A DNA stretch of 31,266 nt from a virus, in IMG/VR virus record IMGVR_UViG_3300024520_000333, positions 1 to 31,266 of that record; one strand, written 5' to 3'. Made by a program: the position numbers and the translations under genes. Shown in pieces: positions 851 to 29,465 of the stretch. Positions within the stretch are counted from its first letter, which is position 1. Each line of letters starts with the position of its first letter. The notes under the pieces were generated by a model. It was not told the origin of the DNA. It saw only the letters and a list, made by a program, of their open reading frames with translations, and did no database searches.

Positions 851-1024
851 GGGCCATTGGCGCAGTTAGGTAGCGCATCGGGCTTTTAAGGGGTTTATCG
901 AATAATAAGGAGAAAATCTTTTCCGTACATCGAGATAGTAGTTTCAATTATTTGGTTGTTTCCACTATGAACTTCTTTCCTCGAAGATACCCGATGGTCG
1001 TGGGTTCAAATCCCACATGGCCCT
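851..1024 (+). tRNA. tRNA-Lys(UUU) with 100-nt archaeal intron
   Basis: Exon 1 is 851-888 and exon 2 is 989-1024. The acceptor GGGCCAT pairs with ATGGCCC (1017-1023), the D-stem is GCGC/GCGC, the anticodon stem TCGGG/CCCGA holds loop CTTTTAA with anticodon TTT (885-887), and the T arm is GTGGG-TTCAAAT-CCCAC. The intron at 889-988 sits at the canonical 37/38 position and forms a bulge-helix-bulge: CTTT (883-886) pairs with GAAG (983-986), the three-base bulges are TAA (887-889) and ATA (987-989), and GGGG (890-893) pairs with CCTC (979-982). Splicing needs the host endonuclease. The discriminator is T, unusual for Lys, and no CCA is encoded. Confidence 0.93.
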
Positions 1025-1268
1025 CCTATTCAAAAACATCACATCTTTCCTGAGCATGAAACAAAAGGCTCAATCCTACTCTTTAGAGCAAACTAAAGGT
1101 GAGTCCCAACCTCTACCGAATAGACTTAAAATATGGTATTAATAAAATAAATTTAAAGAAATACTTTAAGCACCTCGGTCTTGATTGATGCAGAGCCTTA
1201 AGGTATTTATATTAAAAAACCATCCTGAATATGATGCTTCATTTTTTTGAAGAAAGTGTTCTATATAC
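1025..1268. other. non-coding spacer between tRNA-Lys and tRNA-Leu
   Basis: I see no ORF with a start and a ribosome binding site. The 5' half has a small GAGC/GCTC hairpin near 1052-1072, and the 3' half holds the long stem-loop listed separately. The rest is AT-rich and I see nothing recognisable in it. Confidence 0.5.
1159..1208 (+). other. 12-bp perfect stem-loop, candidate ncRNA or processing element
   Basis: AAATACTTTAAG (1159-1170) pairs with CTTAAGGTATTT (1197-1208) over all twelve positions with one G-U pair, enclosing a 26-nt loop. It lies about 60 nt before tRNA-Leu. It could be a processing signal, a terminator or a small RNA. No family is recognised. Confidence 0.4.
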
Positions 1269-1353
1269 GCGGGGTTTCCAGAGTGGTCAAATGGGAGAGG
1301 CTTAAGACCTCTTGGATAATCCTTCGCAGGTTCAAATCCTGCACCCCGCACCA
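1269..1353 (+). tRNA. tRNA-Leu(UAA), CCA encoded
   Basis: Acceptor GCGGGGT/ACCCCGC, anticodon arm AGAGG-CTTAAGA-CCTCT with TAA at 1303-1305, a long class II variable arm (TGGATAATCCTTC) and T arm GCAGG-TTCAAAT-CCTGC. The long variable arm confirms Leu. The discriminator is A1350, followed directly by CCA at 1351-1353, so the tail appears to be genomically encoded. Confidence 0.93.
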
Positions 1354-1363
1354 ATTCTTAAAA

Positions 1364-1437
1364 GGACAGTTAGCACAGTCTGGAAGTGCGCCACGCTCAT
1401 AACGTGGTAGTCATTGGTTCAAATCCGATACTGTCCA
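1364..1437 (+). tRNA. tRNA-Met-type (CAU anticodon)
   Basis: Acceptor GGACAGT/ACTGTCC, D arm GCAC/GTGC, anticodon arm CCACG-CTCATAA-CGTGG with CAT, and T arm ATTGG-TTCAAAT-CCGAT. The discriminator is A1437 and no CCA follows. The arm lacks the three G-C pairs of an initiator, so it is either elongator Met or the Ile2 tRNA whose C34 is modified to read AUA. The sequence alone does not decide. Confidence 0.9.
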
Positions 1438-1453
1438 TTAACGAGGCATAAAT

Positions 1454-1555
1454 ATGAGAAATATAATTTTATTTGAGAAAATATTAGATAAAATGGGCGA
1501 AGTAAACTCATTTGATGTTAGATACCAATTAATAATTAGTTGGTGTGTAACATGA
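1454..1555 (+). CDS. 33-residue hypothetical peptide
   Basis: Starts MRNIILFEKILDKMGE. It has ATG with a weak GAGG upstream and a four-base ATGA overlap with the following zinc-ribbon gene, which supports translation. No family is recognised. Confidence 0.4.
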   Translation: MRNIILFEKILDKMGEVNSFDVRYQLIISWCVT

Positions 1556-1683
1556 TATGTTTTAAATGTAAAGAAGAAATGTTTTGTATTGAGACCTTTA
1601 CTCAAGGCCAACAATCAATAGTGGGCTTTGAGTGTAGACCCTGCAAAATAAAGTATGAGGTGAAGAACAATGCCAATGTGTAA
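1552..1683 (+). CDS. 43-residue zinc-ribbon micro-protein
   Basis: Two Cys pairs at residues 3/6 (CFKC) and 28/31 (CRPC), separated by a short beta-rich segment, give a zinc-ribbon layout. It overlaps the gene before by ATGA and the gene after by 14 nt. Function is unknown. It belongs to a set of tiny Cys-pair proteins scattered through the window. Confidence 0.6.
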   Translation: MICFKCKEEMFCIETFTQGQQSIVGFECRPCKIKYEVKNNANV

Positions 1684-1768
1684 AAAATGTTCTTGCACCC
1701 GATTTATTGGGCATGGTAACAAAGTATATTGTGTTAATTGTAATGAGGTGATAAAATGGCTGAATTAA
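1670..1768 (+). CDS. 32-residue zinc-ribbon micro-protein
   Basis: CKKC (residues 4-7, plus C9) and CVNC (residues 21-24) around a short turn give a minimal zinc ribbon. It overlaps both neighbours, and the AGGTGA before the next gene lies inside it. Function is unknown. Confidence 0.5.
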   Translation: MPMCKKCSCTRFIGHGNKVYCVNCNEVIKWLN

Positions 1769-2001
1769 ATGACCATCAAGATAGTGAACATTTTTTATAT
1801 GATAAATCTTGGAAAGAAATTGAAGATATGTTAGACGATGCCGAACGTCGGTTAAACTATCATCTAACTAAAATCAGTCGAAAGAACATTTCTAAGAAAC
1901 AACAAGTTTATCACTTGAGGAACTACAAGGCTCTTCAAGGGGTAATCAAAACACTTCGATGGGTATTGGGTGACATTAGCATTCAAGACCCATTAGAATA
2001 A
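1756..2001 (+). CDS. 81-residue hypothetical, helical
   Basis: Begins MAELNDHQDSEHFLYDKSWK. The body is strongly helical and charged (EIEDMLDDAERRLNYHLTKI and onward), probably a helical hairpin or coiled coil, with no Cys or membrane segment. The start follows GAGGTGATAAA at good spacing. No family is recognised. Confidence 0.6.
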   Translation: MAELNDHQDSEHFLYDKSWKEIEDMLDDAERRLNYHLTKISRKNISKKQQVYHLRNYKALQGVIKTLRWVLGDISIQDPLE

Positions 2002-2014
2002 AAAGGTGAAAAAA

Positions 2015-2206
2015 ATGAACGTAGAAGAAGTAACAATAATTGTGGCTATGGTTATGTCCGTAATGCCAGTAATGTGGATTGCCTATCTATACTATAGATT
2101 GGAAATCAATAAACTAAAACTTGCTGTTAAGATTGAACAGACACGTTCTGAAACAAATTTAGTAGTTTCGGAAACAAAGCCTACACTATTCCCTGAACAG
2201 GAGTAA
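2015..2206 (+). CDS. 63-residue single-pass membrane protein
   Basis: Starts MNVEEV, then a hydrophobic helix at about residues 7-27 (VTIIVAMVMSVMPVMWIAYL), then a charged helical tail. ATG 2015 is preferred over GTG 2006 because the GGTG at 2005-2008 serves as its ribosome binding site. It probably sits in the host membrane. Its role is unknown. Confidence 0.6.
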   Translation: MNVEEVTIIVAMVMSVMPVMWIAYLYYRLEINKLKLAVKIEQTRSETNLVVSETKPTLFPEQE

Positions 2207-2217
2207 TGTAGCAATTT

Positions 2218-2294
2218 GGGCATATAATGTAGTTTGGAAATCATTTTGGCCTTCTAAGCCGAGAACAGGGGTTCAAATCCTCTTATGCCCGCCA
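2218..2294 (+). tRNA. tRNA-Arg(UCU), CCA encoded
   Basis: Acceptor GGGCATA/TATGCCC, anticodon arm TTGGC-CTTCTAA-GCCGA with TCT, and T arm AGGGG-TTCAAAT-CCTCT. The D arm is weak (ATG/CAT). G2291 is the discriminator, and CCA follows at 2292-2294. It reads AGA, which is frequent in the AT-rich genes of this window, so a codon-supply role is plausible. Confidence 0.88.
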
Positions 2295-20882: not shown

Positions 20883-21156
20883 AGGAAAAAAGATGCAAAA
20901 TGGTATGGTTTTACCTGAAGGATTAACTTCGTCAAAACCAACCACTTTATATAAAATTATGAAAATTTTAAAAGAAAATGGTGAATTAAGCAAAGACGCC
21001 ATGTTAAGTAGAATGAAATTGCGATGGAAATATTATCCTGATGCTAAAAAATTAGTGGCTATTTTACATAAAAGAAACGATGTATTCACTTGGAAATTAG
21101 ATAGGAAAATTAAGATATATAATCTATTGGAGGAATGGAGAAATGCTATGGACTGA
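20872..21156 (+). CDS. 94-residue winged-helix-like protein
   Basis: Basic N-terminus, then helices TTLYKIMKILKENGELSKDA, a recognition-like helix and a strand-turn-strand (NDVFTWKLDRKIKIYNLLEE). This is the shape of a winged-helix DNA-binding domain. It overlaps both clamp-loader-like genes. It could be a detached C-terminal piece of the large subunit or an independent partner. Confidence 0.5.
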   Translation: MKRKGKKMQNGMVLPEGLTSSKPTTLYKIMKILKENGELSKDAMLSRMKLRWKYYPDAKKLVAILHKRNDVFTWKLDRKIKIYNLLEEWRNAMD

Positions 21157-22048
21157 AAAATATAGACCTAATACAATAAAACAAATTATGGGAAATGGGG
21201 CATTTATTGAAGATGCAGGTACTTGGATGGAAAATCGTGATATTCCTAATTTATTATTATATGGCCCTGCCGGAACAGGAAAAACTAGTGCGGCAATTGC
21301 TTTAGCAAAGGACGTATTAAAAGAGGATTTTGAATTAAATTTTCTAGAATTAAATGCTAGTGATGACCGAAGATTAGAAACAGTCAGAACTAAAATCAAA
21401 GAGTTTGCTGCAACCGGTAAAATGGGTAATGTCCCATATAAAATTTGTCTATTAGATGAAATGGATGGGATGATTATTGATGCACAAAATGCTTTAAAGC
21501 GAATCATTGAACGGTATCATACTAATATTAGATTTATTATTACTTGTAATGATAGAAATAAAATTATTTACCCTGTGCAATCTAGATGTGCGAATTATTT
21601 TTTCAATTTAATTCCTTCATCCACAATAGCATTTACACTTGAACGTATTTTAGTCTTAGAAGGACTCCCTGTGATGGATAGAAAGATTTTGGAGCAATTT
21701 GCCGAATCTCATCATGGTGACTTAAGGCGGTCTATTGGTGAATTACAAGCAGCGGCGTCGAGTGGGAAGGCCTTAAATAGCCATAAGTCGGAGGCACTTT
21801 CGACGCATCGGGTCCTTCTTGGACTTTTGATAAACAGAAATCCTAAAGCCCTAACGGAAATACATAATATGCTATTTTCGGGCTTATCCGTAAAGGATGT
21901 TTGTCATGGCCTCCATGACGTATTATTGAAAGAGGATTATGATAATGAAACGAAGTATAAATTTTTAAGAATTATAGGAGAAACAGAATATAGAAGTAAC
22001 ACCATGACGCCACGAATTGTAGCATCATGGATGGTAGCCCAAATTTGA
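21143..22048 (+). CDS. rfcS: replication factor C small subunit
   Basis: 301 residues, close to archaeal RfcS (about 320). It loads PCNA onto primed DNA using ATP. RFC boxes are clear: WTEKYRP at the start, Walker A GPAGTGKTSAAIAL (G41-T48), ELNASDDR, Walker B ICLLDEMDGM, the sensor strand RFIITCNDR, the SRC motif (SRCANYFF), and HHGDLRRSIGELQAA in the lid. The PCNA gene lies 2.3 kb downstream in the same direction. Confidence 0.93.
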   Translation: MLWTEKYRPNTIKQIMGNGAFIEDAGTWMENRDIPNLLLYGPAGTGKTSAAIALAKDVLKEDFELNFLELNASDDRRLETVRTKIKEFAATGKMGNVPYKICLLDEMDGMIIDAQNALKRIIERYHTNIRFIITCNDRNKIIYPVQSRCANYFFNLIPSSTIAFTLERILVLEGLPVMDRKILEQFAESHHGDLRRSIGELQAAASSGKALNSHKSEALSTHRVLLGLLINRNPKALTEIHNMLFSGLSVKDVCHGLHDVLLKEDYDNETKYKFLRIIGETEYRSNTMTPRIVASWMVAQI

Positions 22049-23568: not shown

Positions 23569-24405
23569 ATGAGTTGGGCAGCAACAACAACGACACAAGC
23601 GGTGTCAGAAGAAAATCTGTTAGAGATTATTAAAGCAGAAGTAACTCAAGAATTAGAAGCAATTCTTGAAAGACAAAGAGCACATTTATGCTGTTTGATT
23701 TACGGGGATGCAAAAACTGGTAAATCTGGTTTAGCATTAGATTGTAGAACGACAGAAGAATTGGATAATGATGCCATTATTATGGTGTTAGATTTTGATA
23801 ATGGAGTCGAACCCACTTGGAGAACGAATTGGGATTCCGACCCAAATATTAAAATCTTAAATCCTATTGCTAGAGATGATGAAGGATTCCCTAACTTAGA
23901 TAAAACGGTTAGAAGAGCAGAAGCCTTTATTGCTATTGCTAAGGATTATCTGAATGAAGGAAAAACTGTCAAATTCATTTTTGATGGTATTGACCGTTGG
24001 CTACGACTTGCTATTTATGCTATGCCTATCGACAAAAGGGCCACAAAAATTCAAAAGATGCCAAGAGAATGGGGAGTTAGAAATTTAGCATATGAGCAAT
24101 TAGTGGAAAAGGTTACTGATGGATTAGACTGTGACCGATTCTTTATTACTCACATGAAAGACAATTATGAAAATAATATTGTGGTAGGTAGGGGTCCGAA
24201 TATCAAGGAGCAAACTATTGATAAGGTGACTCAAGTCATCGAAGTCAAATCAAATAAGTTAGGAAAGAAACACACTTCAACCGCAACAATTGTTGCAAGT
24301 AAAACTAACACCGAATTGGTTGGGAAAACCTTTGATTTCTTAATTATTGATGATGGAGAAGTTACTTGGACAGCAATTGAGGAATTGCAAAAAGGTGAAC
24401 TTTGA
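23569..24405 (+). CDS. RecA-fold ATPase, Sak4/RadA-like
   Basis: 278 residues. Walker A GDAKTGKSG (G46-S53) is in the usual place, with a Walker B-like strand FIFDGIDRW and a RecA-type core. It lacks the N-terminal HhH domain and the full length of host RadA (about 320-350), so it fits short phage Sak4-type recombination ATPases best. Such proteins promote strand annealing or exchange with the cognate SSB. An RPA-like gene lies just upstream and PCNA just downstream. Confidence 0.75.
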   Translation: MSWAATTTTQAVSEENLLEIIKAEVTQELEAILERQRAHLCCLIYGDAKTGKSGLALDCRTTEELDNDAIIMVLDFDNGVEPTWRTNWDSDPNIKILNPIARDDEGFPNLDKTVRRAEAFIAIAKDYLNEGKTVKFIFDGIDRWLRLAIYAMPIDKRATKIQKMPREWGVRNLAYEQLVEKVTDGLDCDRFFITHMKDNYENNIVVGRGPNIKEQTIDKVTQVIEVKSNKLGKKHTSTATIVASKTNTELVGKTFDFLIIDDGEVTWTAIEELQKGEL

Positions 24406-25169
24406 TGCAGATTACTTTAGCAAAAGAAGTTTTCGTTGAAGCATTTAAAGCCGTGGAAATGAAAGGGAAGTGGTTTACATCAACAGGATTAAAAAGTGAG
24501 ACTTTGGGTAGTTTTGTAAAAATCGTTGCTAAAGAGGATAATCCTAGAAGGGGTTTACATTTCATGAATGCTAATAATCAGACATTCGTAGATTATTGGA
24601 TTCCTATGGATGTTGAAGTAAATGAAACCGTGGTCTTAGATATTTCTAAAGCAATGAAGTATCTAAATACGATGAGTGATTTCGTAACATTGGAAGCGGG
24701 CCAACATGGTTGCCTTTTTACATCTGAAAGGAAAACATCAAAATTTCCTTCAAATGTAATTCATCCGAATAATGGTGCGTGTGAAAGTTTTTTTCGTGCT
24801 TCACAAAATATTGACCAAGAAAATTATGAAATTGAATGGGGTGAATTTCCAATAACTTCCGGATTTGTAATCGAGGCAAAGGATTTCGCTAAGGTGATTA
24901 AGTCATGTGAAATTGTTGGACATGGAGTGTATAAATTACAGGTAACAAATGATGCCGTATTAATCACTTCGTCAATCAATACTAGTGAATTGTATAGTGA
25001 AAATATTGCTACTGCACATCATTTTGGCGAAGCGACCGTTGAATATACGGGGCCGATTCATTCGGCATTTAAGTCTGGATTCATTACATTTTATTTTAAT
25101 GATGAGTCGTTAGTGGTAGCAATTTCAGATAATGTGTTAGTAGCAAGAGCGCCGTATGTGGTGGTATAA
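24405..25169 (+). CDS. pcn: PCNA-like sliding clamp
   Basis: 254 residues, the normal length for PCNA. It encircles DNA and tethers polymerase, ligase and nucleases. The C-terminal third is most PCNA-like: ATVEYTGPIHSAFKSGFITF, then YFNDESLVVAISDNVLVARA, matching the last domain strands. A central linker and two-domain layout are present. The start is ATG 24405, overlapping the upstream stop as TGATG. The RFC and PolB genes are close. Confidence 0.8.
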   Translation: MQITLAKEVFVEAFKAVEMKGKWFTSTGLKSETLGSFVKIVAKEDNPRRGLHFMNANNQTFVDYWIPMDVEVNETVVLDISKAMKYLNTMSDFVTLEAGQHGCLFTSERKTSKFPSNVIHPNNGACESFFRASQNIDQENYEIEWGEFPITSGFVIEAKDFAKVIKSCEIVGHGVYKLQVTNDAVLITSSINTSELYSENIATAHHFGEATVEYTGPIHSAFKSGFITFYFNDESLVVAISDNVLVARAPYVVV

Positions 25170-25711: not shown

Positions 25712-27382
25712 ATGATTATTTGTCAAACGGAATCTAACGGCGCGATTAATATTAGATGGCGAGATAAAGAAGGTAATAGAGAAGAGTCTACAATTACAGA
25801 TTTTAATCCATACTTCTTTATCCCGGTATTTGCCGATGAACCAGATTTTTATGAGGTTAGTCAAAGTATTGGAGGGCGAAGAGTTAAATTAGAATATCCA
25901 TATTTGTATGAGGAAGGAGATTGGTTTAGCCTTCAGCAAAAACCTTTAAAGAAAGTAAAGGTTGTTAGAGCCGGAGACATTTATAGTGCTAGAAAGTATT
26001 GGCCTAAGACATATGAAGCAGATGTTCCTTTTCATTATAGATATTGTATTGATAAGCTAGAAAAATTAGAAGAGTATAACTTACGCAAATGGTATTGGGA
26101 TATGGAATGGATTAATAATGACCCTGAACATGGAGATGCGATTACTTGTATTGTTGTGTATGATAATTACAATGAGAAATTCACAACTTACTTTTGGCTT
26201 CCGAAAGGAATTCATGAACATATGGGAGATGCCCATGATAGTGAAAAAGAAATGCTTGAGGCATTTATCGCTGATATTCAAGAACAAGACCCTGATATGC
26301 TAATTTCATGGTTCGGGTCAAAGTTCGATTTACCGAAACTGATTCATAGAATGAAGCATAATGATATTGACCCTAGAGGGATTTCTCCTTATAACGAAGT
26401 AAAAGGAATTAACTTGGGAGAATTATCTAAAAAGGTAGATAACTATTCTCCCATTGAACAACCTATCAGGGGAAGAATTACTCTAGATTTGGATTTAGCA
26501 TTTGAGCGCCAATGGAATGATGCTCAACGTGGAACATTACCTTCATTGGCTCTTGACTATGTTTCTGAAACAGTATTAGGAGAAAAGAAATTAGTATCTG
26601 AGAAGTTTCCCGACAAGAACGAATTTTTTAAGAGAGGATGGTTGGAAGATACTGAGAGATACCTTGAATATGCTCAAGTGGATGTTGATTTAATTCGCCG
26701 GCTTGATGATGAAATGGGACTCAGCGAGGGGATTATATCTTTGCAAAGACTTTTGATTGCACCCTTTGATGCTTGCTTTTACGCGTCAAACATGGGGTCA
26801 ATTTACTTCATGCGGAACGCTGACTGGAAGGCTCCTACGGGCGATAAATCACAGGTTAGAGAAGAATATGATGGGGCATTAATTTATGACCCTATGGAGC
26901 ATGGAACCAATGGTCTTCATATTGGTGTTGCAGCATTTGATTACGCGGGACTATACCCTAGTATGATGTTAGCGAGGAATATCAGTTGGGAAACTCTATC
27001 TCCACGTAAAACAGATTTTGCTGTGAATTTGAAAATTCCAAGGGACTTCTCAGAAGTAACTGAGAAAAAGATGGTTTATTTCAAAACTGATAAATTGGGG
27101 TTATTGCCTCGTTCTGTATTGGAATTGAAAACACTTAGGGATAACTACAAGAATAAGATGCGGGCCGCAAGGTCCGTGGGGAATACGAGGGAATATACTA
27201 AATGGAATAATAGCCAAATGGCCGTTAAGAGATTAATGGCGAGTTTTTATGGAATTGTAGCATATCAGGGATTTGGTTGGGCTAATGTCACATTAGCGGC
27301 TTCAATCACAGCAAGTGCAAGAGAAGCCATTAGAGCAGCAGCATTTAAAGTAGGTGAAATGGATGAGCAGCACATTGTATAA
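25712..27382 (+). CDS. polB1: family B DNA polymerase, N-terminal part (exonuclease, motifs A and B)
   Basis: 556 residues. The 3'-5' exonuclease is intact: Exo I WYWDMEW (D130, E132), Exo II ISWFGSKFDLPK and Exo III YLEYAQVDVD. Motif A is DYAGLYPSMM (D410) and motif B is KRLMASFYG (K506), with Ala where Asn is usual. The chain stops after AAAFKVGEMDEQHIV, exactly before the conserved K-V-V-Y-x-D-T-D-S strand. That strand opens the gene at 27605. The polymerase is thus made in two pieces, each needed for activity. The reading frames of both pieces match (same phase), with about 220 bases and a stop between. Confidence 0.92.
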   Translation: MIICQTESNGAINIRWRDKEGNREESTITDFNPYFFIPVFADEPDFYEVSQSIGGRRVKLEYPYLYEEGDWFSLQQKPLKKVKVVRAGDIYSARKYWPKTYEADVPFHYRYCIDKLEKLEEYNLRKWYWDMEWINNDPEHGDAITCIVVYDNYNEKFTTYFWLPKGIHEHMGDAHDSEKEMLEAFIADIQEQDPDMLISWFGSKFDLPKLIHRMKHNDIDPRGISPYNEVKGINLGELSKKVDNYSPIEQPIRGRITLDLDLAFERQWNDAQRGTLPSLALDYVSETVLGEKKLVSEKFPDKNEFFKRGWLEDTERYLEYAQVDVDLIRRLDDEMGLSEGIISLQRLLIAPFDACFYASNMGSIYFMRNADWKAPTGDKSQVREEYDGALIYDPMEHGTNGLHIGVAAFDYAGLYPSMMLARNISWETLSPRKTDFAVNLKIPRDFSEVTEKKMVYFKTDKLGLLPRSVLELKTLRDNYKNKMRAARSVGNTREYTKWNNSQMAVKRLMASFYGIVAYQGFGWANVTLAASITASAREAIRAAAFKVGEMDEQHIV

Positions 27383-27608
27383 AAAACGAATTAGAACTGA
27401 AGCAGAAAAATTGCGTATTTTTACTAGTGCGGACATTATGCAACAAGTAAATAATTATCCTAATATGTCAGGGGTAGGCAGAACAGCGTATCAAATTACT
27501 ATTTTTCAAGTAAATAGTTTATTTAGGACTATTCCTAATATTCAGATTAAAGTTCCGGGAACGAAAAAAATTCCTCATGTTTGGGAATGGATTAGTGATG
27601 AAAAATGA
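27363..27608 (+). CDS. winged-helix-like ORF inserted between the polymerase halves
   Basis: 81 residues from ATG 27363 (GTG 27354 is an in-frame alternative). After a basic start (MSSTLYKKRIRTEAEKLRIF) come TSADIMQQVNNYPNMSGVGR and helix-strand-strand elements ending IPHVWEWISDEK, a winged-helix pattern. It overlaps the N-terminal polymerase gene by 20 nt and the C-terminal gene by ATGA. No intein or homing-nuclease motifs are seen. It may be a DNA-binding accessory that joins the halves. Confidence 0.6.
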   Translation: MSSTLYKKRIRTEAEKLRIFTSADIMQQVNNYPNMSGVGRTAYQITIFQVNSLFRTIPNIQIKVPGTKKIPHVWEWISDEK

Positions 27609-28396
27609 AAGTAGTATATGCACACACAGATTCAATATATGTTCCTATCAAGAATGTAGAAACCGCAGAAAGTATCTGTAAAAAACTGAATAACCATGTT
27701 AAAAAACTATTCCCTAATTTACTTAATTTGCCAGAACATCCTGTAAGTTTAGAATTTGAAAAATATTACGATGGTTTAGGAGTAGGAACTAAAAGAAATA
27801 GAAATGCGGGTTTCATTTCATGGAAAGATGGAGAATATTTAGATGAACCTGAGTTTGTGGTTACAGGATATTCTATGAAAAGAATTGCAGAAAATAAAAT
27901 AGCAAAAGAATTTCAAGGGAATCTTCTTAAAATGTGGGCAGGTCAAACCCCTAAAGAAACTATTATCAAATATTGTAAAGAGCAATATAATCATGTCAAA
28001 AAAGGCAGAGTAGGCATTCAAGGAATAGTTAAACGAGGCCGAGTGCGTAAATCATTATCAGAATATAAACAGGTTTCGGGAGGTATTGCTGGCGTTTGTT
28101 ATTACAATCAATACTTAGACCAAGACAATCCTATTAATGATTCCTTTTTCTATATTCAATGTTCCCATATTAACGGACCAACAACAATCATCTTACCAAA
28201 TGGGAAAGAAAGAGTGGCGACCTTCATCGCTGTAAAAGAAATGAAAGAATTTGATGAACGATTTACTATAGATTGGAATGCTTATGCACATAAATCTATT
28301 GTTCAAAAGGCAATTCCTATTTTTGAAGCGATGGGCTGGGACATAAAAGAATTTATTATTGATGAAAATCAAAAGAGTTTAAGGGAGTGGTTATGA
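27605..28396 (+). CDS. polB2: family B DNA polymerase, C-terminal part (motif C, thumb)
   Basis: 263 residues. It opens MKVVYAHTDSIYVPI, motif C at residues 5-10, directly after the initiator. The canonical Y-x-D-T-D-S is Y-A-H-T-D-S: the second Asp (D9, the metal ligand) is kept, the first is His7. The K-x-R-y region TKRNRNAGFI and the thumb (VVTGYSMKRIAENKIAKEFQ) follow. Together with the 25712 gene it gives about 820 residues, the size of a whole archaeal PolB. Methanothermobacter also splits PolB before motif C. Confidence 0.9.
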   Translation: MKVVYAHTDSIYVPIKNVETAESICKKLNNHVKKLFPNLLNLPEHPVSLEFEKYYDGLGVGTKRNRNAGFISWKDGEYLDEPEFVVTGYSMKRIAENKIAKEFQGNLLKMWAGQTPKETIIKYCKEQYNHVKKGRVGIQGIVKRGRVRKSLSEYKQVSGGIAGVCYYNQYLDQDNPINDSFFYIQCSHINGPTTIILPNGKERVATFIAVKEMKEFDERFTIDWNAYAHKSIVQKAIPIFEAMGWDIKEFIIDENQKSLREWL

Positions 28397-28542
28397 TGTT
28401 CTGGAAAAAAAAGAAACCCACTATCAATAAACATTTTAAAAAGAAATTGATTGAAGAATTGGCTAGGCTAAGAAACGATAGTCTCTTAGTAGTCAAGGAT
28501 GTTGAAAAATTAATTAAGAAAATCAAGGAGGAAAAACTATGA
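28393..28542 (+). CDS. 49-residue basic hypothetical
   Basis: MMFWKKKKPTINKHFKKKLI, a Lys-rich helical protein that could bind nucleic acid. It overlaps PolB C-terminal part and the Cas4-like gene by ATGA. No family is recognised. Confidence 0.45.
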   Translation: MMFWKKKKPTINKHFKKKLIEELARLRNDSLLVVKDVEKLIKKIKEEKL

Positions 28543-29465
28543 ATTATGTAAGAACATACGGACATGAAAATGAAGAAGGAGAATGGGTTAGGCCTATTCC
28601 AAAACCTGAAGATGAATACACTTATCAATGGAATCCTGAATGGATTAATGACCCAACAAAACCTATTTTAAAGATAACTAAATCCTCACTTGGTTCGTTT
28701 AAATGGTGCAATAAACAATATGAGTTTTCATATTTAGACCGACGGCCTCAAGACCAAACTGAAGCCATGTTAAAAGGAACAATTATTCATGATAATTACG
28801 AAGATTTCTATAAACAAGTTGATATTAAAAAGGCAGAAAATATGTCTTTCTTAGAAATTAACAATTATTTTACTGGGCTATTTCCTATTTCAGATTACAC
28901 AGACTTGACTGACACTATCGCAGCGTTTGAAACACAGCGATTTGTTGATGCTATTAAGGAAGAAAAATTAGAAGAATTCTTACCTGAAGGGAATGAACTG
29001 ATGTTAGACGCAGCAGTTTTAATTACTAGAGACACCAATCCAAAATATCCTTTAAGTAGAGATTATACAATTCATCTTCAAGGAATCATTGATAGGATTT
29101 ATACTGAAGACGGTAATTCTATTCCTTTTGAATTAAAAACTGGACCGTGGAAAGACACTAAAAAAACTGGTATGCGACGAGAAATGGCATTCTATAAAAT
29201 GCTAATGGAAAATTCTCCAGATTGGGAAGGAACAATAACACATTGGGGTTGGTATTATCCTGCTAGTAATTATGTTTACGTTGAAGAAGTTAATAAAAGG
29301 TCTGAAACTGCGATGAAAAAATCGCTTGCTGAAATTATTCATTCGTATGAACAGAATGATTTTAAACCATCATATTTCCATAAGAAGTGCGTCCATTGTT
29401 CATATGTTGGGATTTGTCCGGCAGCGATTGATGCTGAATTAAATAGTGGAGGCAGTTGGTTTTGA
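28539..29465 (+). CDS. Cas4/RecB-like Fe-S nuclease
   Basis: 308 residues of the PD-(D/E)XK superfamily. Active-site residues are GIIDRIY (D185) and FELKTG (E198, K200). Four Cys, C57 (WCNKQ) and C284, C287, C293 (CVHCSYVGIC), give the Fe-S cluster of Cas4 and AddB-type nucleases. These proteins are 5'-3' exonucleases in recombination, replication or CRISPR adaptation. No cas1 or CRISPR array is seen here, so the role is likely DNA end resection or processing. AAGGAGGAAAAACT precedes the ATG. Confidence 0.88.
   Translation: MNYVRTYGHENEEGEWVRPIPKPEDEYTYQWNPEWINDPTKPILKITKSSLGSFKWCNKQYEFSYLDRRPQDQTEAMLKGTIIHDNYEDFYKQVDIKKAENMSFLEINNYFTGLFPISDYTDLTDTIAAFETQRFVDAIKEEKLEEFLPEGNELMLDAAVLITRDTNPKYPLSRDYTIHLQGIIDRIYTEDGNSIPFELKTGPWKDTKKTGMRREMAFYKMLMENSPDWEGTITHWGWYYPASNYVYVEEVNKRSETAMKKSLAEIIHSYEQNDFKPSYFHKKCVHCSYVGICPAAIDAELNSGGSWF

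What the first reader, a model, noticed from the sequence alone, without database searches (positions are those of the whole stretch)
25712..28396. DNA polymerase B split before motif C by a small DNA-binding ORF
The first gene ends right before the K-V-V-Y-x-x-T-D-S strand, which opens the second gene. Between them is an 81-residue winged-helix-like ORF that overlaps both halves. The split point is the same conserved site where pol-c inteins insert and where Methanothermobacter PolB is divided. An ORF with overlapping ends, kept as a three-gene unit, looks selected rather than decayed. The middle protein may help assemble the split enzyme.
Basis: partly seen in the sequence, partly recalled or inferred. 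Interest (0 to 1): 0.8.

Follow-up and report, generated by a model that had tools for sequence, protein, structure and literature searches.

The report
Archaeal-virus DNA polymerase split in two
A family of uncultured marine viruses, related to known viruses of marine archaea, makes its DNA-copying enzyme as two separate proteins because the gene broke once, long ago, and the break has since become a slot where different small genes, such as the small DNA-binding-type gene here, come and go.

Summary
polB-N (25712-27382) stops just before the motif C strand, which opens polB-C (27605-28396). Between them lies an 81-aa ORF (27363-27608) that overlaps both.

All 80 best relatives in IMG/VR end polB-N at the same place; 65 hold both halves. 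Intact single-ORF polymerases form the sister clade, so one ancient fission explains the split. Only loop residues are affected and both halves are under strong purifying selection: a two-subunit enzyme, not decay or assembly error.

The break lies 6 residues upstream of the pol-c intein point; the Methanobacteriaceae split lies 10-15 residues downstream of that point. The three-gene unit is confined to one subclade: others carry nothing, unrelated genes, or up to 2 kb of cargo, swapped between near-identical genomes. The middle protein is a predicted winged helix, single-copy, fast-evolving, and elsewhere in other genomes: best read as a passenger, not an assembly factor.

Split PolB is already labelled in a figure legend for a related magrovirus (PMC10768690); a T4-like analogue is active (PMC2988022).

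The parts
25712..27382 (+). polB-N: N-terminal subunit of split family-B DNA polymerase (exonuclease, motif A, motif B), 556 aa
   Evidence: ORF; PF00136 1-200 part and exonuclease domain; motifs aligned with intact PolBs; same end in 80 relatives
27363..27608 (+). Middle ORF, 81 aa, predicted winged-helix protein; accessory gene carried in the split
   Evidence: ORF overlaps; homologues in the gap of 7 relatives; AlphaFold2 H-E-H-H-E-E, pLDDT 86.8; no Pfam, PHROGs or NCBIfam match
27605..28396 (+). polB-C: C-terminal subunit (motif C YAHTDS, rest of palm, thumb), 263 aa
   Evidence: ORF; PF00136 222-451; Foldseek match to C-terminal part of solved PolBs, E 2e-9
27352..27357 (+). Shine-Dalgarno-like AGGTGA before the middle ORF
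   Evidence: 6-base match to AGGAGGTGA
27605..27608 (+). ATGA overlap: stop of middle ORF and start of polB-C, consistent with translational coupling
   Evidence: sequence; the same overlap is common across relatives
21143..22048 (+). Clamp loader (RFC small subunit) of the same replication module
   Evidence: phrog_168 E 3.5e-56; conserved order in relatives
24402..25169 (+). Probable sliding clamp upstream of polB-N
   Evidence: weak phrog_947 match E 9e-4; conserved position
28539..29465 (+). PD-(D/E)XK/Cas4-like nuclease downstream of polB-C
   Evidence: PF12705 E 1e-13; conserved position in relatives

Best explanation
The two outer genes encode the two subunits of one split family-B replicative polymerase of a magrovirus-like tailed virus. 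A single fission, in an ancestor of this clade, fell in the short loop between the helix after motif B and the motif C strand: intact sisters read ...ELG-YEVIYGHTDS where split members read ...ELE*/MKVVYGHTDS. Each half is translated from its own start codon, polB-C often by stop-start coupling (ATGA) and/or a Shine-Dalgarno-like site. The halves then associate without splicing, the motif C strand of polB-C completing the palm active site of polB-N (inferred). Because the junction can take sequence without breaking the enzyme, it became the main accessory-gene slot of the replication module. The middle ORF is one such passenger, a small winged-helix protein, probably a DNA-binding regulator, not needed for polymerase assembly. 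Shown: the split, its single origin, conserved motifs, purifying selection, variable cargo. Inferred: heterodimer activity, the middle protein's function, the host.
For: Same polB-N end in all 80 relatives kept; 65 with both halves. All three relative reading frames occur, 27/16/22. Intact sister polymerases exist and the split rows form one group with support 100 in a 71-row tree. Alignment shows nothing but loop residues affected. Catalytic carboxylates of the exonuclease, motif A and motif C (the TDS Asp) are kept. dN/dS 0.02-0.17 for polB-N and 0.04-0.15 for polB-C in 11 pairs. SD-like site of 4 or more bases at 80% of polB-C starts versus 20% background. No second PolB in long records. 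polB-C model matches known PolBs, with residues 1-8 disordered when modelled alone. Gap -4 to 1948 nt with variable cargo and clean insertion, loss or swap in near-identical pairs. Middle family single-copy and elsewhere in other genomes, fast-evolving. T4-like phage 25 split 43A/43B co-purify and are active (PMC2988022).
Against: No biochemical or proteomic evidence for the heterodimer. Joint complex not modelled. In the window's subclade the middle gene is retained in all seven relatives found, so a subclade-specific role with the polymerase is not excluded. Whether the first junction was bare or already held cargo is unresolved, because the bare junctions are nested in the tree.
Confidence: 0.8

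Rival explanations
1. The middle winged-helix protein is a third subunit that helps assemble or regulate the split polymerase.
For: Overlapping, co-oriented genes; middle family in the gap in all seven members of the window's subclade; a different winged-helix-like family recurs in the gap of another clade.
Against: Four split relatives have no gap at all; most carry unrelated genes. Homologues sit 4.5-5.7 kb upstream of polB-N or downstream of polB-C in other split genomes. 11 of 20 long records have none detected. It evolves several times faster than the halves: dN 0.43 versus 0.09 and 0.08. The two winged-helix-like families show no detectable homology.
Confidence: 0.07
2. The split began with a mobile element (intein or homing endonuclease) that invaded this spot and was later lost, with the present cargo as its successor.
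For: Makarova 2014 proposes this for methanobacterial PolB3. A GIY-YIG/T5orf172 protein with an HTH sits in the gap of L064 and a weakly HNH-like protein in L077. T4-like phages show split genes with homing endonucleases. Distant relatives carry inteins at pol-c (L107) and pol-b (L126).
Against: The break is not at a known intein point. No intein residue remains at either new end, and no intein or nuclease match in the middle ORF. The nuclease-like cargo is confined to a few tips of the tree.
Confidence: 0.2
3. The halves are joined into one polypeptide by recoding, intron removal or trans-splicing.
For: Overlapping ORFs in the window could invite frameshifting.
Against: Gaps hold in-frame stops and all three relative frames occur. 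No group I or II intron match in the window or four loci. Neither half carries intein sequence. polB-C has its own start signals.
Confidence: 0.03
4. Recent frameshift, decay or assembly error.
For: Related viruses with one intact PolB exist.
Against: The same break is in all 80 relatives kept, from separate contigs, with purifying selection on both halves and no second PolB in long records.
Confidence: 0.01

Closest known systems
PolB-NTD/PolB-CTD of Aoguangviridae, virus YSH_150918 (ON649702), order Magrovirales (PMC10768690)
   Same: Split PolB labelled in the genome figure legend; largely the same replication gene set (RFC-S, PCNA, ligase, TFB, chaperonin); marine archaeal tailed virus
Split gene 43 (43A/43B) of T4-like Aeromonas phages 25 and 44RR (PMC2988022)
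   Same: T4-like PolB in two genes, with different material in the gap of related phages (seg homing endonuclease or untranslated sequence); 43A and 43B co-purify and have polymerase activity
   Different: Bacterial viruses; an independent event; break point not compared here; gap contents unlike the window's
Split PolB3 of Methanobacteriales (Kelman 1999, via PMC4104785)
   Same: Archaeal PolB made as two proteins without known splicing
   Different: Cellular PolB3; in four Methanobacteriaceae genomes the N-piece contains motif C and ends 10-15 residues after the pol-c point; in one genome the pieces lie on different contigs
Nanoarchaeum equitans PolB and other pol-c intein polymerases (PMC549080)
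   Same: Interruption near motif C
   Different: They use (split) inteins at YGD|TDS; no intein here, and the break is 6 residues upstream
PDB 2OD5, putative nucleic-acid-binding protein from a marine metagenome
   Same: Foldseek rank 1 for the middle protein (TMq 0.62) and a weak profile hit (E 0.08)
   Different: 17% identity; function unknown; no known link to polymerases

Membership tests
Family-B DNA polymerase (the two halves together) | Profile coverage of exonuclease, palm, fingers and thumb across the two halves | tested here: met
   PF03104 and PF00136 in polB-N, PF00136 222-451 in polB-C, phrog_262 14-560 and 574-843; fold match of polB-C
Family-B DNA polymerase (the two halves together) | Catalytic motifs ExoI, ExoII, ExoIII, A, B, C | tested here: met
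   Catalytic carboxylates and motif B Lys kept; the first Asp of motif C is His in all split members and in most intact kin
Family-B DNA polymerase (the two halves together) | DNA polymerase activity of the two-chain enzyme | not testable with these tools
   Needs expression and assay
Magrovirales / Aoguangviridae-like virus | Archaeal-type replication set with TFB and chaperonin, split PolB | tested here: met
   Searches compared with PMC10768690
Magrovirales / Aoguangviridae-like virus | Phylogenetic placement with the type genome; MGII (Poseidoniales) host | not tested
   ON649702 and OR863078 are not held; no host link computed
pol-c intein or split-intein polymerase | Insertion at YGD|TDS with intein motifs | tested here: not met
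   Break 6 residues upstream; both new ends align as extein only; no intein match
Methanobacteriales-type split PolB | Same break position | tested here: not met
   Methanobacteriaceae N-pieces include motif C
Homing endonuclease remnant (middle ORF) | LAGLIDADG, HNH or GIY-YIG profile match | tested here: not met
   No match in Pfam, PHROGs or NCBIfam for the window protein
Winged-helix DNA-binding protein (middle ORF) | H-E-H-H-E-E winged-helix fold | tested here: met
   AlphaFold2 pLDDT 86.8; many winged-helix structures at Z up to 8.8
Winged-helix DNA-binding protein (middle ORF) | DNA binding | not testable with these tools
   Fold alone does not show it

The most novel reading that the evidence does not exclude
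The split is kept because it is useful: separate synthesis of the motif-C subunit, coupled to whichever small gene precedes it, lets the virus set the dose or timing of active polymerase, and winged-helix proteins carried in the gap (two families without detectable homology, in two clades) act on that operon or on the polymerase.
Probability: 0.12. Interest if true: 0.7.

Novelty: new variant of a known kind. Interest (0 to 1): 0.45.

Why it matters
It traces one gene fission in a replicative polymerase, with intact sisters for comparison, at a point that differs from the pol-c and Methanobacteriaceae break points examined here (the T4-like break point was not compared). It makes testable how a palm active site assembles from two chains, and why a broken essential gene is kept and turned into an accessory-gene slot. 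It also warns annotators that the N-terminal piece of these viruses' PolB lacks motif C.

Tried and rejected
The window's polB-N had no relative in GTDB genome contigs. Weak middle-protein hits downstream of polB-C in L051/L058 fall in or next to another gene's homologue and were dropped. Homology of the middle protein with the gap winged-helix-like proteins of the L068/L036 clade was tested and not found (hhalign probability 3%). Recoding and introns rejected. A Pfam HK97 capsid search was silent in eight records. Assembly error rejected. The 950-990-aa 'open frames' reflect that tool reading through stops; the sequence has stops there. Philosof 2017 is not in the library, so a mention of the split there is unchecked.

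Full report
WHAT IS THERE. polB-N runs 25712-27382 (556 aa) and polB-C 27605-28396 (263 aa), same strand. The middle ORF starts at ATG 27363 and ends at 27608 (81 aa); it overlaps polB-N by 20 nt and polB-C by 4 nt, ATGA. The halves match consecutive parts of the same profiles: PF00136 36-200 and 222-451; phrog_262 14-560 and 574-843. The record is a 31,266-base IMG/VR virus contig. Its other genes include an RFC small subunit, a weak sliding-clamp match, an ATP-dependent ligase, TFB, a chaperonin, a ribonucleotide reductase and a PD-(D/E)XK nuclease. [quoted passage not shown] The host was not tested here. That paper's figure legend already labels PolB-NTD/CTD; its text does not discuss the split.

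THE SPLIT IS ANCIENT AND SHARED. 540 IMG/VR stretches encode a polB-N relative; the best 80 were kept. All 80 end polB-N at the same place; 65 also hold polB-C, which in every case opens at motif C. The frame of polB-C relative to polB-N is 0, 1 or 2 in 27, 16 and 22 cases, so a conserved frameshift cannot join them. Fourteen long records contain only these two PolB pieces, no second intact copy.

WHERE IT BROKE. A search seeded with an intact haloviral PolB found related single-ORF polymerases of about 770-820 aa, most sharing the unusual motif C YGHTDS. In a 71-row tree the 36 split rows need one change, support 100, and a clade of 14 intact rows is their sister, support 100 (quick method, SH-aLRT support). 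Intact sisters read ...AREAMRSVAFKSIELG-YEVIYGHTDS; split members read ...AREAIREAAFIVRELE*/MKVVYGHTDS. Only loop residues between a helix and the motif C strand are affected. The D-to-H change in motif C is shared with intact kin, so it came before the split.

NOT THE POL-C OR METHANOGEN SITE. The pol-c intein point is YGD|TDS (PMC549080), six residues downstream of this break. A distant viral PolB, L107, has such an intein (YGD|S...VHN|TDS). In four Methanobacteriaceae N-pieces (L255, L256, L257, L260) motif C is included and the protein ends 10-15 residues after that point. M. thermautotrophicus itself was not examined.

BOTH HALVES ARE SELECTED. Across 11 close pairs dN/dS is 0.02-0.17 for polB-N and 0.04-0.15 for polB-C. 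Catalytic carboxylates are kept. SD-like matches of 4 or more bases precede 80% of polB-C starts against 20% at random positions, and an ATGA overlap with the preceding ORF is common. Modelled alone, polB-C has good confidence except residues 1-8, the motif C strand, and it matches the C-terminal part of known PolB structures. That is what one would expect if this strand needs its partner in polB-N; this step is inference. A precedent exists: 43A and 43B of Aeromonas phage 25 co-purify and are active (PMC2988022).

THE GAP IS A CARGO SLOT. The polB-N to polB-C gap runs from -4 to 1948 nt in 65 relatives. Its median (348 nt) is the second highest of eight core-gene junctions, behind one that always holds a conserved gene, and its interquartile range (265-918) is the widest. 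Contents range from nothing to about eight small ORFs: putative membrane proteins, zinc-ribbon-like proteins, winged-helix-like proteins, a T5orf172/GIY-YIG protein with an HTH (L064), and a protein with a weak HNH-endonuclease match (L077). Near-identical pairs show events at the junction: about 100 nt present in L015 and absent in L024, about 100 nt present in L041 and absent in L048, and a cassette swap between L054 and L064 in which homology stops exactly at the polB-N stop codon.

THE MIDDLE PROTEIN. It is predicted as a winged helix (pLDDT 86.8), with assorted winged-helix structures as best matches. Homologues occupy the gap in L002-L007 and L020, all in the window's subclade. In L023, L025, L060 and L072 the family sits 4.5-5.7 kb upstream of the polB-N start, and in L032 about 0.4 kb downstream of polB-C. 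A search of 20 long records found exactly one copy in each of nine and none in the rest; among 11 further records, mostly intact-PolB viruses, one weak match was found (E 5e-5). Between L005 and L007 its dN is 0.43 against 0.09 and 0.08 for the polymerase halves. It behaves as a relocating, fast-evolving accessory gene. A DNA-binding regulatory role is inferred from fold only.

VERDICT. Observation confirmed; 'selected, not decayed' supported; site identity and a conserved three-gene assembly unit not supported. The thing is a two-subunit PolB, already labelled once for a related virus, here given an origin, an exact break point and a junction behaviour.

LIMITS. No wet-lab or proteomic evidence; a quick tree; best-80 sampling of 540 relatives; type magrovirus genomes and Philosof 2017 unavailable; host not tested; the middle-family profile includes the sequences found first, so its later scores lean on them.

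Noticed in passing
window 27605-27634; loci L102-L132: Motif C reads YG/A-HTDS (first Asp replaced by His) in all 66 split polymerases and 33 intact ones, and YGFTDS in four more; outgroup PolBs have DTDS.
   Followed up: partly
L107:3935-7477; L126:3971-7540: Viral PolB genes with apparent inteins: L107 at the pol-c point (YGD|S...VHN|TDS), L126 inside motif B (LAN|C...Q|SIYGY).
   Followed up: partly
window 1756-2001; L004, L005, L007 just upstream of polB-N: An 81-aa gene near the window's left end has 62-67% identical homologues immediately upstream of polB-N in three relatives: another small gene that changes place.
   Followed up: no
L064 8008-8631 region: A GIY-YIG/T5orf172 protein with an HTH sits in the split gap of L064/L065 and is absent from near-identical L054; a candidate free-standing homing endonuclease.
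   Followed up: partly
L054 versus L064; L002 versus L003: Synonymous divergence differs between polB-N and polB-C in some close pairs (0.11 versus 0.43; 0.13 versus 0.04), hinting at recombination near the split.
   Followed up: no
gap of L036, L039, L042, L043, L044, L054, L064, L067, L068, L076, L078: A second family of small winged-helix-like proteins recurs in the split gap of another clade, sometimes in two copies, with no detectable homology to the window's middle protein.
   Followed up: partly
window 851-2291: tRNA cluster: Leu(TAA), Met(CAT) and Arg(TCT), plus a 174-nt Rfam tRNA match at 851-1024 long enough to hold an intron.
   Followed up: no
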